Shown piece by piece: positions 378 to 15,791 of a DNA stretch of 64,000 nt (positions within the stretch are counted from its first letter, which is position 1; every line of letters starts with the position of its first letter). Both the position numbers and the translations under genes were made by a program. This stretch comes from Pseudanabaena sp. FACHB-2040 (GTDB lineage Bacteria; Cyanobacteriota; Cyanobacteriia; Phormidesmidales; Phormidesmidaceae), in NCBI RefSeq assembly GCF_014696715.1, contig NZ_JACJQO010000010.1, forward strand, positions 186,001-250,000, in the 5' to 3' direction. Below the pieces are notes generated by a model. That model was given only the letters and a program-made list of their open reading frames with translations. It was not told where the DNA came from and made no database searches.

Positions 378-1580
378 GTGGATTTCTTGTCAGAATTCTT
401 AACGAATTTTGGGGCTCAGTTGCAGTCCCCGACCCTTGGCTTTTTGATTGGCGGTATCGTTATTGCTGCCCTCGGTAGCGAACTGCAAATTCCCGATGCG
501 ATCTATAAGTTCATCGTTTTCATGCTGCTCATCAAAGTCGGCCTGACCGGCGGCATGGCAATTCGCAATGCTAGTCTGGCGGAGATGCTGCTGCCTGCGC
601 TGTTCGCCGTGATAACGGGGATCGTGATTGTGCTCATCGCGCGTCACACGTTTGCCAAACTGCCGGGTATCAGAGTTGTGGATGCCGTTGCGACCGGGGG
701 CTTGTTCGGTGCCGTGAGTGGCTCTACCATGGTCGCCGGCATAACGGTACTGGAAGGGCAAGGCATCGAATACGAGGCCTGGGCCGGCGCACTCTATCCC
801 TTCATGGACATCCCGGCGCTCGTGACTGCGATCGTCGTAGCCAGCATTTATACCAACAAGCAGAAGCGCGACAAGTATCTCAAAAACGAGAAGTATCTCA
901 GAAATGAAGATTATGTCGGCATGCAGCCGGTTGCCGCAGGCGGGGCTCCAATCGACCACCCAGTTGCCAGCGGGACTCCAATCGACCAGCGCAGCGGTAG
1001 TGCAAGCGGATATTCCGGCGAGTCAGGTGGTTCCGCAGGCGGGTATTCCAGTGGGCCGGGCGGTTCTCCAAGTGGGCGAGTCAAGATCTGGCCCATCGTG
1101 AAGGAAAGCATCCAGGGATCTGCCCTATCGGCACTGCTGCTCGGTCTTGCCCTAGGCATCCTAACCCGGCCGGAAAGTGTCTACGAGAGCTTCTACGATC
1201 CCCTCTTCCGCGGCCTGCTTTCGATCCTGATGCTGATCATGGGTATGGAGGCTTGGGCAAGACTCAACGAGCTGCGCAAGGTGGCTCAGTGGTACGCCCT
1301 ATATGCCTTTGTGGCACCATTCCTGCATGGGTTTGTCGCCTTCGGTCTCGGCATGATTGCCCACTATGTAACGGGTTTCAGCGCTGGCGGTGTCGCGCTC
1401 CTGGCCGTCATTGCCGCCTCTAGTTCAGACATTTCAGGGCCGCCCACGCTACGAGCTGGTATCCCGACAGCCAATCCCTCTGCCTACATCGGCGCGTCCA
1501 CAGCCATCGGCACGCCGGTTGCGATTGCATTGTGCATACCGCTCTTCGTCGGGCTCGCCCAGGCTCTGATAGGCAGCTAA
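378..1580 (+). CDS. sbtA: sodium-dependent bicarbonate transporter SbtA
   Basis: SbtA is the high-affinity Na+/HCO3- symporter of the cyanobacterial CO2-concentrating mechanism in the plasma membrane. The 400-residue protein has about ten hydrophobic segments in two halves. The family-typical stretches GSTMVAGITVLEG, RPESVYESFYDPLFRG and SSSDISGPPTLRAGIP are present. The start is GTG, preceded by a strong GGAAGGAGG. The cytoplasmic loop between the halves (about residues 165-235) is longer than I expect for SbtA and rich in Gly/Ser with degenerate repeats (PIDHPVASGTPIDQ, then GGSAGGYSSGPGGS). sbtB follows 84 bases downstream on the same strand, the usual arrangement of transporter and PII-like regulator. 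Confidence 0.96.
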   Translation: MDFLSEFLTNFGAQLQSPTLGFLIGGIVIAALGSELQIPDAIYKFIVFMLLIKVGLTGGMAIRNASLAEMLLPALFAVITGIVIVLIARHTFAKLPGIRVVDAVATGGLFGAVSGSTMVAGITVLEGQGIEYEAWAGALYPFMDIPALVTAIVVASIYTNKQKRDKYLKNEKYLRNEDYVGMQPVAAGGAPIDHPVASGTPIDQRSGSASGYSGESGGSAGGYSSGPGGSPSGRVKIWPIVKESIQGSALSALLLGLALGILTRPESVYESFYDPLFRGLLSILMLIMGMEAWARLNELRKVAQWYALYAFVAPFLHGFVAFGLGMIAHYVTGFSAGGVALLAVIAASSSDISGPPTLRAGIPTANPSAYIGASTAIGTPVAIALCIPLFVGLAQALIGS

Positions 1581-4394: not shown

Positions 4395-4768
4395 TGAAGA
4401 TGTTCGAAGACTCTTCGTCAGCACGTTTGCTGAGCAGAGGTCCCCCTAATTTTCTTCGGAAAAGGGAGTAGAAAGCTCTCGTTTCGAGCAAGGGGAAGCA
4501 AGTAGCTAAGATGGAGCGCAAACTAATTCTTTTTTCGCCAAATTTAGTTTTGTATCTAACTTTACTAGATTACCCACAAGGGGCATGGCAATAGAGAGAA
4601 GGCTTTTCATACTTAAAGACATACCTGATAGCAACAGCCACACTTTGTCTCTGAATTAGCAACATTAAACTAGCTCACTTTAACTTGATGGGTGAAGCTT
4701 TTTTGATTTGAGATAGAGTCACAAATTGCTGCTAAAAGGCTACTATCCTAAACCAGGAGAAACCTGTT
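4395..4768. other. intergenic region, no gene seen
   Basis: This 374-base AT-richer gap separates the aldo/keto reductase-like gene from the paralogue pair. I see no credible ORF or strong hairpin. The sequence CAGGAGAA at about 4755-4762 is the ribosome binding site of the next gene, so its promoter should lie in this stretch. Confidence 0.5.
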
Positions 4769-6337
4769 ATGTCTTTTGAACAGCCCAGTGCTCTAGCTAA
4801 CTCGATCATGGCAAGTTTGTACGATGTCCTTACGAGCGGCGATAATAACGTGCCCGCTTCTGAGGATAATTTCTTTAGCTGGAGCGCCCCAGGAATACCC
4901 ATTCAAGCCGAAGACTTTGACTTTCTAAGCCAAGGGCTAACCGGTGTTGTCAATAAAGATGCGCTTAATAACCTCACTACCGAAACAGAAACCCCAGAAC
5001 TGACTCCAGAACTGCTTGATCAGCTGCGAGCTACCGACACGGCTCGGCTATATATGCAGGCTGAAAGTTTTGCTAGATTGGTTGATTTTGTCCCTGATTT
5101 GGCTAAGCTTGACAACCAGCAATATACTCGTCTGAGCGTGATGAACAATGAGGGAACTCTCTCAGAACGCTATGAATATATTTTGCGCATGAGCCAAGTC
5201 ATGCAGTCTGAACTCCCTGAAGATATCAAACAAAAAATCGAGCGTTTTCGCGGCCTGTTAAACGTTACTCGAACAGAGACCGATCTATTGGGTAGAGAGC
5301 GTGAGGTCACAGAAGATGGCCCTATCGTCAAGCTTTACCAGGAGAAAATGGCTGCCTACGAATCTGCTGCGCTGGAGTATAACAACCGGCGCATCGCGGC
5401 CCTAGCAGCTAGCAGGCCCGAAGATGTGCACTACTGGGCAATGAACGCCAGTATTTTGCGGAACCGGGTCAAGGCGGCTTTAGGCGATTGGGTTTCTAAT
5501 GGCTACAAAAATGACTACGAAGCCATTAACGCCTTTATTGATCAGGTCATGCAGCGAGACATGTCTCTGCTCAAAGCCCAGTATCAAGACGATCTGGTTA
5601 AGGCGAAGCTCACTAGTCTGGCCTCGGGCAGCGATTTTTACTTTACCTCTGTGGTACCGGGTAACTTTACTCGGGCCTCTGGGTGGACGGAGTTTAGCTT
5701 TAACTCGGTGCGCCACAACCGATATAAAAACTCTCAGTATGCCTCGCGGGCCTCTTCTACCCGAGGTGGGGGTGGGTTTAGTCTAGGATTTCTCTCCGTT
5801 GGTGGCAGAGGTGGGGCTAGCAACTCCAGCACATCCTATGAATCGAAGGTAAGCTTCGACACCAGCCGGTTCCGGCTGTCTTTCAAAATCGCTCAGGTTT
5901 TAGTGGCCCGTCCCTGGCTCAAAACTGCGTATTTGAACAGCAAAACCTGGCGCTTTGACCAAAACAACCCCGAAGCCAAATCTCAAATGGTGAGCGATGG
6001 CGGCAACCCGGCCAAAGGCCTGATTCCTGCCTATCCCACGGCTATGGTGGTGATTAAGGATCTAGTGCTATCCCTGGGCCAGAGCAGCGGCTTCTCGGAA
6101 TATCTCTCGGAGTATGAACGGTCATCCGCTAGCGGCGGCGGCGTGCTGTCTTTTGGGCCCTTTAATTTGGGTGGCTCTCACACTCGGGCGACCAGCCTGG
6201 GTGAGACTACTTCAACCCAGGGCTACAGCTTTGATGGCCAAACCATGCGAGTGCCGGGTATGCAGGTGATTGGCTTTAAGTGCCATGTGTTGCCCAAGTC
6301 TCCTAATCCGCTGCCCGATATCGAAAAGTGGATTTAG
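4769..6337 (+). CDS. uncharacterised 522-residue protein, paralogue A
   Basis: I do not recognise a named family. There is no signal peptide or membrane segment. Three parts are visible. An acidic N-terminal half (1-270) is predicted mostly helical, with LYQEKMAAYESAALEYNNRR as a coiled-coil-like stretch. A middle to C-terminal part has SGWTEFSF, FRLSFKIAQVLVARPWL and KTWRFDQN. Two Gly/Ser-rich strand-like insertions occur near 325-355 and 450-475. The C-terminus GFKCHVLPKSPNPLPD closely resembles the tail of the next gene's product, and alignable blocks recur in the same order. The two genes are therefore tandem paralogues. The ATG at 4769 is preceded by AGGAGAA. Confidence 0.8.
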   Translation: MSFEQPSALANSIMASLYDVLTSGDNNVPASEDNFFSWSAPGIPIQAEDFDFLSQGLTGVVNKDALNNLTTETETPELTPELLDQLRATDTARLYMQAESFARLVDFVPDLAKLDNQQYTRLSVMNNEGTLSERYEYILRMSQVMQSELPEDIKQKIERFRGLLNVTRTETDLLGREREVTEDGPIVKLYQEKMAAYESAALEYNNRRIAALAASRPEDVHYWAMNASILRNRVKAALGDWVSNGYKNDYEAINAFIDQVMQRDMSLLKAQYQDDLVKAKLTSLASGSDFYFTSVVPGNFTRASGWTEFSFNSVRHNRYKNSQYASRASSTRGGGGFSLGFLSVGGRGGASNSSTSYESKVSFDTSRFRLSFKIAQVLVARPWLKTAYLNSKTWRFDQNNPEAKSQMVSDGGNPAKGLIPAYPTAMVVIKDLVLSLGQSSGFSEYLSEYERSSASGGGVLSFGPFNLGGSHTRATSLGETTSTQGYSFDGQTMRVPGMQVIGFKCHVLPKSPNPLPDIEKWI

Positions 6338-6463
6338 GCCACTGAGTCAAAAACATAGGTTTCTAAATTAGATCCCCTCAGCTTCCCCTGTTGCAGCTCA
6401 ATTTTACCCCTCAGCAGGGGGTGAGGGGGTTTCTGCGATGGTCCCTTGATCGAGGATTTTACG

Positions 6464-8098
6464 ATGGATGCTATTGCCCAACTGGCCTTAATGCACAAAG
6501 CCCAAAAAGTCTTTGGGAGCGACAGTACATTTCTCAGCTTCCCGGTAACGCCGCTGCAATATACCCAGGCAGAGCTGAGTTTTGTTCAAGATCTTAACGT
6601 GCCGCGTTTGAAGGAGTTTTCTCTGCTGGTCAACCTCATTCCGACGGGAGACGCCTGGCAACCGACAGAGGCAGAGTATCTCTGGGATGTTTATGGCGAT
6701 GTTTTAGGCGGGCACGACACTGAATTGGCCCAGTCAACCCGTAGCCCTCAGGAGGAAGCCCAGTACCAGGCTGCGGTGCAGTTTTTAAACAGCAAGCGGG
6801 ATGATGGCTGGCTTGAACCTAGCCCTGCTCTCAGGCTGTATAGCCAGTTTCGCGATCAGTGGTTTGTGCTGCAGGAACGCTACGCTACTGCTAAGTTAAC
6901 GGGTGAAACCGCTACGAACCTTGAGATTAAGACCCATTGGCAAACGCTGGAAGAGCCTCAGCTGCGCCAGCAAATCAGTGACCTGGAGACGCGATGGGTG
7001 AATGAGGGCTTTAAACAGGAGGTTGAACAGGCTCAGCAGGTGAGGAACCGCTTAGGGGGAAAAAACCCCAACAAGACCTGGGGCGAATGGAATGAGAAAT
7101 TTAACCCCGATATCAATGCCCTTACGGATGTGGATAATGTCCAGTTTTATCCCAGCAGTTTTTCTCCCATTAATGCTTTGGAGTCCGGATCTTGGCAGCC
7201 GTTTACCTTAGCTAAGGATGAAGTTGAGGCGATGGTGAGGGCGGCCCCGGCGGAGTTGCGATCGCGACTAGCCGCCGACCGCCAAGACTCAGATATTGCC
7301 TCCATCTCTTTGGAGTTTAGCTCTGCTGCCATTTTGCGTACCTGGCTCGACTCTGACCTGTTCAAAGCCCGGTTCTGGCGCTTTTCCGATGGCTCAAAGC
7401 AGCTTTCTGATGGTAAGATGCCCGCCTCTGGGCGCTGCCCCGCCTACGTTACTGCCGTTGTTTTTGCCCGCAATATCACTATTAAGCGAGCTACCCCCCC
7501 GGCCAACTCAGGAACACCCCAAGGGCCAGGCAGGGTGCTTCCCAACAAGTTACCCCTCACAGCTGAAAGGTTAGAGTTCTCCAAGGCTGTACAAGTCCTC
7601 AAGGTTCGGCCCAACCCGCAGGTGGTTAGCACAAAACCCCTGACTCATCAGCTAGGGCAGCCTGCCCTGGGCCAGCCAGCACCCGCAGTCAGGCAAAATT
7701 TTCAGGTAGCCTCGATTAAGCCCAATTTGACTCAAGTGAATTTTGTGCAGGCTGCCCCTGCTAGCTCCTTCAAAACTGCCCAAATTAGCGCTTTGCAGGG
7801 GATAAACATATCCAAGCCGCTCCGGGTGAACCCTAACCCACCAATAGCTATCAACCAACTCGCTACGCCAACGGCTCAGATCTTGCAACAGGAAGCTACG
7901 TCTAAAGCCTTTCGGCGTCTTCAACAGGAGGCGATTTTCCGCCCCACCCTGCCCCAGGCTCCAGACTCTAGCCAAACCCCAGATGCCTCGGTTAAACCCT
8001 CTGAAACCACTACAGCACCGGATCAGATTTACGTTCTCGCGTTTATTTGTAAGGCTCTACCGCCTAGCCCTAACCCTGATCTGACTTTGCCTTGGTGA
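6464..8098 (+). CDS. uncharacterised ~544-residue protein, paralogue B
   Basis: This is a diverged paralogue of the preceding protein. LYSQFRDQWFVLQERYATAK matches its helical stretch, SGSWQPFTL matches SGWTEFSF, ISLEFSSAAILRTWL with ARFWRF matches LSFKIAQVLVARPWL with KTWRF, and AFICKALPPSPNPDL matches its C-terminal tail. Between the last two blocks it carries a long Pro/Gln/Ala-rich linker (about residues 345-515) that A lacks. I place the start at ATG 6464, with CGAGGA seven bases before it; a TTG at 6446 has no such site. The gene lies 126 bases after A on the same strand and is probably co-transcribed. Function unknown. Confidence 0.8.
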   Translation: MDAIAQLALMHKAQKVFGSDSTFLSFPVTPLQYTQAELSFVQDLNVPRLKEFSLLVNLIPTGDAWQPTEAEYLWDVYGDVLGGHDTELAQSTRSPQEEAQYQAAVQFLNSKRDDGWLEPSPALRLYSQFRDQWFVLQERYATAKLTGETATNLEIKTHWQTLEEPQLRQQISDLETRWVNEGFKQEVEQAQQVRNRLGGKNPNKTWGEWNEKFNPDINALTDVDNVQFYPSSFSPINALESGSWQPFTLAKDEVEAMVRAAPAELRSRLAADRQDSDIASISLEFSSAAILRTWLDSDLFKARFWRFSDGSKQLSDGKMPASGRCPAYVTAVVFARNITIKRATPPANSGTPQGPGRVLPNKLPLTAERLEFSKAVQVLKVRPNPQVVSTKPLTHQLGQPALGQPAPAVRQNFQVASIKPNLTQVNFVQAAPASSFKTAQISALQGINISKPLRVNPNPPIAINQLATPTAQILQQEATSKAFRRLQQEAIFRPTLPQAPDSSQTPDASVKPSETTTAPDQIYVLAFICKALPPSPNPDLTLPW

Positions 8099-14831: not shown

Positions 14832-15791
14832 TTAGCGGGCAAGATTTAACAGTTCTTTGGGAGATGCCAGCAAATCAATAGCAACAAAGAAAATTTTATC
14901 GTTAGGGCTAAGCAAGAATCTCCAGGCCATATTCATGCCCACACCTGCACCAAACCAAGGAGTTTGCACTTTGCCGGTGACTTTTATCTGGGTATAACCA
15001 TCGGCAGCGGGTTCAGCAATTCCCTTCTCGGGGATGAGCTTCAGATTTTGGCACTCTTCTCTGAAAAACCGAAGCACAGATTCTTTGCCGACGATGGGTC
15101 TTTGGAAGGGGGGTTGGAGAGCGCCATCTGGCTCGAACATCTCAATTAGCGCATCAAAGTCATTCGCATTGAGATTGTTCATGTAGCTCAAGATAATTGG
15201 ATTATCTACACCATCAATGGTGACTTGAGTTCGTTGATCAATCTCTGCAGGAACAACAACGGGTTCAGAAATCTTGGTGTAGGTTCCTAACTTGCTTGAG
15301 TCAAACCCCAAGTCAACCACGGTATTTCGTAGAACCGTAATTTGCTGACCTGGCTCTAAACCTCTGATGGTTTGCAAGACAGCTGCAGCATTGGCTGAGA
15401 GCTTGTAAGCGGCTGGAATAGGAGCTACTAGGCCCTGATCCATCCATTGCCCAAGCTGATACCAGAAGCCTAGTTTGATGTTGGCAGACCAAGTCGCATA
15501 GGTTCGCCCGATGGGTGTATCGGCGTGGTTTGTGAGGTCACACATGACCTGCGACTGCTCTTGAAACGACATTTGTCGAATCTGATTTAAGGTTGTTTCA
15601 GCAAACTGCATACTAGCTGCTCCTGGAGCAGCAATAGTAATCGTTTTACCCATTTCAAGGTAAGCAAACCAAATTAATGCAAGCTGATCTTCAGCACTCA
15701 GTTGGTTAAAGCGGGCGATAGTGGCAGGCACTACATCGGCAGCTAACGTGCTAGGAAAAATTCCACGTGCAGAATCGACTGTAAATGACAT
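14832..15791 (-). CDS. ocp: orange carotenoid protein OCP
   Basis: OCP is the water-soluble keto-carotenoid photoreceptor that, after blue-green light, binds phycobilisomes and dissipates energy as heat. The 319-residue protein has the all-helical N-terminal domain (1-165), a linker (about 166-195) and a C-terminal NTF2-like domain (196-319). Carotenoid and interdomain residues are in place: W41, Y44, W110 and R155, then Y203, E246, W279 and W290, which correspond with a +2 shift to Y201, E244, W277 and W288 of Synechocystis OCP. With frp downstream and these residues kept, it looks like a photoactive, FRP-regulated OCP1-type protein (inference). Confidence 0.97.
   Translation of the reverse strand: MSFTVDSARGIFPSTLAADVVPATIARFNQLSAEDQLALIWFAYLEMGKTITIAAPGAASMQFAETTLNQIRQMSFQEQSQVMCDLTNHADTPIGRTYATWSANIKLGFWYQLGQWMDQGLVAPIPAAYKLSANAAAVLQTIRGLEPGQQITVLRNTVVDLGFDSSKLGTYTKISEPVVVPAEIDQRTQVTIDGVDNPIILSYMNNLNANDFDALIEMFEPDGALQPPFQRPIVGKESVLRFFREECQNLKLIPEKGIAEPAADGYTQIKVTGKVQTPWFGAGVGMNMAWRFLLSPNDKIFFVAIDLLASPKELLNLAR

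What the first reader, a model, noticed from the sequence alone, without database searches (positions are those of the whole stretch)
4769..8098. Tandem, strongly diverged paralogues of an unrecognised large protein
Both proteins share, in the same order, a helical stretch (LYxxx... repeated aromatic/Glu pattern), SGxW, a block ending (R/A)xxWL...(T/R)(F/W)WRF-like, AYxTAVV/AMVV, and a C-terminal F(K/I)C(H/K)xLPxSPNP tail. They differ in insertions: A has Gly-rich strands, B a ~170-residue Pro/Gln-rich linker. No known domain is evident. A conserved order with a near-identical terminal tail suggests a two-component complex or a targeting signal at the C-terminus.
Basis: partly seen in the sequence, partly recalled or inferred. 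Interest (0 to 1): 0.6.

Follow-up and report, generated by a model that had tools for sequence, protein, structure and literature searches.

The report
Unnamed two-gene pair, probable pore-former
Two neighbouring, distantly related genes of a cyanobacterium belong to a so far unnamed protein family that travels as a pair between distant bacteria; one partner carries two matched hairpins that look built to enter a membrane, so the pair may be a new kind of two-part pore-forming weapon, though nobody has tested it.

Summary
Gene A (4769-6337) and gene B (start corrected to ATG 6464, end 8098) are diverged paralogues: BLASTP E 9e-9; profile-profile probability 99.7%, E 9e-27 over 337 columns. 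Neither matches Pfam, NCBIfam, PHROGs, PADLOC or PDB sequences. The pair, sometimes a triplet, recurs in about 33 of 36 genomes or plasmids where I found an A-like protein (cyanobacteria, Nitrospirota, a further phylum, rhizobial plasmids), patchily and in differing gene neighbourhoods.

A's C-terminal domain reads as four beta strands with two Gly/Ser-rich inserts, between strands 1/2 and 3/4, the layout of MACPF/CDC-type pore-formers. In 11 very diverged A proteins the inserts are exactly 49 and 52 residues; longer ones occur in both inserts together, and two Nitrospira copies lack exactly four residues on each of the four arms. Hydrophobic residues alternate around each tip. B replaces insert 1 by about 30 helical residues, and insert 2 by a Pro/Gln linker or, elsewhere, by domains (DUF7452, CarboxypepD_reg).

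Best reading: a two-component pore-forming system, A the pore-former, B the targeting or assembly subunit. The matched hairpins are well supported; membrane insertion and target are inference. Structure models were too poor to test the fold.

The parts
4755..4759 (+). Shine-Dalgarno-like AGGAG of gene A
   Evidence: sequence
4769..6337 (+). gene A, 522 aa, A-type paralogue (carries both Gly/Ser-rich inserts)
4784..5617 (+). A: N-terminal mostly helical region, residues about 6-283
   Evidence: AlphaFold2 secondary structure, low confidence; region conserved between A and B profiles
5702..5872 (+). A insert 1, residues 312-368 (57 aa), Gly/Ser-rich, proposed hairpin 1 between strand 1 (WTEFSF) and strand 2 (RLSFKIAQVLVA)
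6071..6250 (+). A insert 2, residues 435-494 (60 aa), Gly/Ser-rich with GPF tip, proposed hairpin 2 between strand 3 (IPAYPTAMVVIKDLVL) and strand 4 (QVIGFKCHVLP)
6263..6334 (+). A: strand 4 and C-terminal tail QVIGFKCHVLPKSPNPLPDIEKWI
6338..6463 (+). intergenic gap between A and B; no terminator-like site found in it by the simple scan
6464..8098 (+). gene B, 544 aa, B-type paralogue (start corrected from TTG 6446 to ATG 6464; GAGGA at 6452-6456)
7211..7300 (+). B insert 1, residues 250-279 (30 aa), predicted helical, in place of A's hairpin 1
7490..8023 (+). B insert 2 slot: Pro/Gln-rich linker, residues 343-520, mostly predicted disordered; in relatives this slot holds DUF7452 repeats or a CarboxypepD_reg domain
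8030..8095 (+). B: last strand and tail YVLAFICKALPPSPNPDLTLPW

Best explanation
A and B are the two subunits of a two-component system of a so far undescribed protein family that moves between bacteria as a cassette. Proposed mechanism: B binds a target surface or nucleates the complex through the variable module in its insert-2 slot and then recruits A; several A copies assemble; A's two long beta hairpins, one from each insert, extend side by side from a four-stranded sheet and insert by their hydrophobic tips, making a beta-barrel pore. Shown here: homology of A and B, conserved pairing, position of the inserts, invariant and jointly changing insert lengths, the four-arm symmetry of the one clear length change, alternation of hydrophobic residues around the tips in the diverged members, and the exchange of domains in B's slot. 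Inferred: oligomerisation, membrane insertion, the roles of A and B, and the target (most likely other microbes).
For: Homology across 337 columns. Pair or triplet in about 33 of 36 genomes or plasmids with an A-like protein. In A types the inserts are 49 and 52 aa, without any length difference in 11 proteins as little as about 20% alike, while the strand 2-3 loop varies from 45 to 53. In the clade nearest to the window's A both inserts are long (53-57 and 60 aa), except in the Nitrospira RBC093 and RBC044 copies (49 and 52), which lack exactly 4 residues on each of the four arms, as hairpins that must match in length would. Around each tip hydrophobics fill 67% of outward against 2% of inward positions (insert 1) and 65% against 8% (insert 2); tips read Gly-Leu-Phe and Gly-Pro-Phe. 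B types lose hairpin 1 and hold variable modules in the slot of hairpin 2: Pro/Gln linkers, three DUF7452 repeats (E 8e-58), CarboxypepD_reg (E 3e-10); a PLAT-like C-terminal domain in another (E 2e-4, just under its cut-off). Neighbours in several lineages are cell-wall hydrolases: PG_binding plus CHAP-like, Amidase_2 plus SH3, NlpC/P60-like; a hemopexin protein in one. The S. meliloti copies begin with signal-peptide-like stretches.
Against: No experiment. The AlphaFold2 models are poor (mean pLDDT 42 for A, 54 for B), and fold searches gave nothing significant (the top row for A was a gasdermin pore at E 0.14, probability 0.14, which proves nothing). No match to a MACPF, thiol-cytolysin or gasdermin model, and neither the MACPF nor the CDCL motif. 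The alternation is only borderline once the scan over tips is allowed for (p 0.062 and 0.046), and the window's own A is so Gly-rich that it is not significant in that single sequence. The joint length change rests on one or two events in the tree. Most copies, the window's included, have no evident signal peptide, so export is unexplained. No wall hydrolase lies beside the window's pair.
Confidence: 0.5

Rival explanations
1. A and B form a non-pore extracellular or surface complex (adhesin, matrix or scaffold). The hairpins of A dock subunits to each other or to a ligand, and B carries the binding module.
For: B's slot holds binding-type modules (DUF7452, CarboxypepD_reg); hydrophobic tips are short and the hairpin arms of the window's A are Gly/Ser-rich rather than clearly lipid-facing.
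Against: Exact conservation of hairpin lengths and their joint change suit a fixed span; the window's pair has no evident signal peptide or surface anchor; patchy distribution and plasmid carriage suit conflict genes more than structural ones.
Confidence: 0.22
2. An intracellular suicide or defence system: A is a gasdermin-like pore held inactive with B and released on a trigger, killing the producing cell.
For: Most copies lack evident signal peptides; a caspase-like gene (Peptidase_C14 E 1e-7, PADLOC caspase E 3e-8) lies next to the triplet in L053; TIR-domain genes and a weakly viperin-like radical SAM gene lie near the S. meliloti triplet; restriction-modification genes lie near the Acuticoccus copy.
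Against: A and B match no PADLOC model; the caspase gene is divergent and seen once; binding-type domains in B and signal-peptide-like starts in the S. meliloti copies point outside the cell; no recurrent trigger gene.
Confidence: 0.15
3. A release or wall-remodelling module: A and B work with the neighbouring cell-wall hydrolases to open the producer's or a neighbour's envelope, without a membrane pore.
For: Hydrolases of unrelated families lie beside the pair in Nitrospirota, cyanobacteria and G976.
Against: Many pairs, the window's included, have no such neighbour; the neighbouring enzymes are mostly not homologous to each other, so they look like accessories.
Confidence: 0.1

Closest known systems
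CDC-like (CDCL) two- and three-component toxins of Bacteroidota (PMC7527733, PMC11169675, PMC11952106)
   Same: Adjacent paralogue pairs or triplets; one subunit specialised as pore-former, the other as platform; patchy, mobile; two membrane hairpins per pore-forming subunit from one sheet (here inferred).
   Different: No detectable sequence relation; the F/Y-F/Y-Xn-YGR motif is absent; CDCLs have lipoprotein signals and need proteolysis, neither seen here; I could show no counterpart of the N-terminal helical half of A and B.
MACPF superfamily (Pfam PF01823)
   Same: Order of elements in A's C-terminal half: strand, insert, strand, strand, insert, strand.
   Different: No match to PF01823 at E up to 10; signature motif absent; no MACPF match in 292 cyanobacterial genomes searched.
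Gasdermins, including bacterial ones
   Same: Two hairpins from one sheet in the pore state; no signal peptide in most copies; one caspase neighbour.
   Different: No family match; top fold row is far from significant; tandem paralogues are not a gasdermin trait (own knowledge).

Membership tests
MACPF (PF01823) | match to the family model | tested here: not met
   hmmscan of A and B, E up to 10: none
MACPF (PF01823) | signature (W/Y)G(T/S)H(F/Y)x6GG | tested here: not met
   pattern absent in 19 A-type proteins; motif from own knowledge
MACPF/CDC fold | bent four-stranded sheet with two membrane-hairpin inserts | tested here: inconclusive
   order and lengths of strands and inserts agree but the models are of low confidence and fold searches not significant
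CDCL | F/Y-F/Y-Xn-YGR motif | tested here: not met
   YGR absent in all 19 A-type proteins (motif from PMC7527733)
CDCL | adjacent paralogous subunits, pairs or triplets | tested here: met
   pairs and triplets in about 33 of 36 genomes or plasmids
CDCL | pore formation by the two subunits together after proteolysis | not testable with these tools
   needs purified proteins
Gasdermin | match to gasdermin family models | tested here: not met
   no match of A or B in Pfam or PADLOC
The unnamed A/B family described here | A-type: both Gly/Ser inserts with G-hydrophobic tip, RPW-like motif after strand 2, Q(I/V/L)(I/L)(G/A) strand and LPKSPNP-like tail | tested here: met
   window A and 18 relatives anchored and compared
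The unnamed A/B family described here | B-type: same core, insert 1 replaced, variable insert 2 | tested here: met
   window B and relatives

The most novel reading that the evidence does not exclude
A previously unrecognised superfamily of two-component pore-formers, without sequence relation to MACPF, CDC, CDCL or gasdermin, in which the targeting subunit arose from the pore-former by exchanging its second membrane hairpin for interchangeable recognition domains.
Probability: 0.3. Interest if true: 0.8.

Novelty: new variant of a known kind. Interest (0 to 1): 0.55.

Why it matters
If true, it adds a widespread but unnamed group of two-part pore-formers in cyanobacteria, nitrifiers and on rhizobial plasmids, organisms in which antagonism by such proteins is little known, and offers a clear natural experiment: a subunit whose membrane-hairpin slot has been reused for recognition domains. 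Even if the pore reading fails, it defines a conserved, horizontally moving two-gene family with no annotation in the public libraries searched.

Tried and rejected
Known domains: Pfam, NCBIfam, PHROGs and PADLOC scans of A and B gave nothing credible; a Trypco2 match at E 0.75 covers only the Gly-rich stretch and was dismissed. PDB sequence searches by sequence and by family profile: nothing credible; the 14-3-3 and ribosomal rows cover only the helical half. Phage origin: no match in phages or viral contigs. Structure models of A and B: too low in confidence for fold claims; fold searches gave only coiled-coil look-alikes for B, among them XaxA and AhlC of alpha pore-forming toxins, none significant, and for A an insignificant gasdermin top row. 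The MACPF search of cyanobacteria as a source of profiles found none. A simple 14-residue alternation test that ignored the phase flip at the tip was not significant (p 0.15 and 0.26); the flip-aware test was borderline. The tail as a targeting signal was rejected. Promoter and terminator scan not above chance. A Neorhizobium plasmid hit is a weak match only. Paper searches found no description of the family; only open-licence papers were searchable.

Full report
Observation. The window is from a cyanobacterium close to Nodosilinea (relatives). A (4769-6337) and B are in tandem on the + strand. B's TTG start at 6446 should be ATG 6464, which has a GAGGA at 6452-6456 and begins the MDAIAQLAL segment conserved in relatives. 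A and B are homologous: BLASTP E 9e-9 for the pair alone and 99.7% probability, E 9e-27, over 337 columns for the two families. They match no described family in Pfam, NCBIfam, PHROGs or PADLOC.

Distribution. A-like proteins occur in Nodosilinea and other Leptolyngbya-like cyanobacteria, in Nitrospira and other Nitrospirota, in two genomes of a further phylum, and on plasmids of Rhizobium, Sinorhizobium meliloti and Acuticoccus. They are patchy: 17 of 65 genomes of the order, 4 of 339 sampled across the phylum (own genome included), 5 of 246 and 2 of 400 in two other phyla. The window's A is 58-63% identical to Nitrospirota copies but about 40% to one from its own bacterial family, and the flanking genes differ between many loci, so the cassette has moved horizontally. 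By my count of the loci read, about 33 of 36 genomes or plasmids with an A-like protein have a B-like paralogue beside it; three clusters hold three paralogues (S. meliloti, G065, G383), and three records have a single A-like protein (Acuticoccus, G038, G351). Some copies are broken: A is split in G033 and in the second locus of G032, and both genes are partial in G1045.

Anatomy. Both proteins have a mostly helical N-terminal half and a C-terminal half with four predicted strands (low confidence). In A the strands are WTEFSF, RLSFKIAQVLVA, IPAYPTAMVVIKDLVL and QVIGFKCHVLPKSPNP. Two Gly/Ser-rich inserts (41% G+S+T in inserts against 23% in the whole proteins) lie between strands 1 and 2 and between 3 and 4. 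In eleven A-type proteins from alphaproteobacteria, cyanobacteria, Nitrospirota and G976's phylum the inserts are exactly 49 and 52 residues, without a single length difference, while the loop between strands 2 and 3 ranges from 45 to 53 and the N-terminal part from 241 to 324. In the clade that holds the window's A the inserts are 53-57 and 60, except in the Nitrospira RBC copies, which have 49 and 52 (tree built without the inserts; rank correlation 0.96, inflated by relatedness). In an unconstrained alignment these copies lack four residues on each arm of each insert. Two hairpins with arms in register explain this simply. In the eleven short-form proteins hydrophobic residues alternate on both arms with the phase flip expected at a hairpin tip: 67% against 2% and 65% against 8%. 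With the scan over tip positions allowed for, column shuffles give p 0.062 and 0.046; the window's own sequence alone shows no significant alternation.

B types. B keeps the core but has about 30 predicted-helical residues in place of insert 1 and a variable stretch in place of insert 2: 126-186 residues of Pro/Gln-rich linker in the window and its nearer relatives, three DUF7452 repeats in G003/G033, a CarboxypepD_reg domain in G1049, unrecognised stretches in G422 and G1048; a PLAT-like domain follows the core in a B of G065. So the slot of the second hairpin has been reused for exchangeable modules.

Neighbours. A PG_binding plus CHAP-like protein lies beside the pair in L011, L014 and L095; another PG_binding protein in L097; an Amidase_2-SH3 protein two genes downstream of B in L035/L036; an NlpC/P60-like protein in the L009/L010/L096 loci; a hemopexin protein in L096; a caspase-like gene divergent from the triplet of L053. 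None lies beside the window's pair. These are suggestive but not constant.

Mechanism. The best reading is a two-component pore-former: A supplies two hairpins per subunit, B the targeting or assembly function, as in the experimentally described CDC-like pairs and triplets, in which one platform subunit recruits many pore-forming subunits (PMC11169675, PMC11952106). The family is not a member of MACPF, CDCL or gasdermin by the sequence tests possible here; whether it shares their fold could not be decided. Steps shown: homology, pairing, insert positions and lengths, exchange of domains in B. Steps inferred: assembly, membrane insertion, roles, target.

Verdict. Novelty: new variant of a known kind if the pore reading is right. 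Limits: no experiment, poor structure models, few independent length changes.

Noticed in passing
window 378-1580 and 1644-1997: Looks like the bicarbonate transporter SbtA followed by a PII-like SbtB (recognised by eye, not searched).
   Followed up: no
window 14832-15791 (-): Orange carotenoid protein (recognised by eye, not searched).
   Followed up: no
L034 (S. meliloti plasmid NZ_CP021807.1) 10596-13553: Five consecutive TIR-domain genes near the three secreted-looking paralogues; a radical SAM gene upstream has a weak viperin (pVip) match.
   Followed up: partly
L053 7061-8311: Bacterial caspase-like protein fused to Agenet/Tudor-like domains, divergent from a family triplet.
   Followed up: partly
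L037 10233-10772 (-), L039 5084-5623, L104: Conserved 179-aa protein directly upstream of A in one cyanobacterial genus, no Pfam family; resembles PLAT-like domains by eye.
   Followed up: no
L040 3120-6308 and L055 5569-8052: Single, much larger A-like proteins (1062 and 827 aa) without a B partner, with long helical stretches in the N-terminal half.
   Followed up: partly
L033 6738-7466: Unknown 242-aa protein just upstream of the Rhizobium pair, no Pfam or PADLOC match.
   Followed up: partly
L036 10560-11147: 195-aa protein between B and the amidase with a weak match to A (E 0.004); possibly a truncated third paralogue.
   Followed up: no
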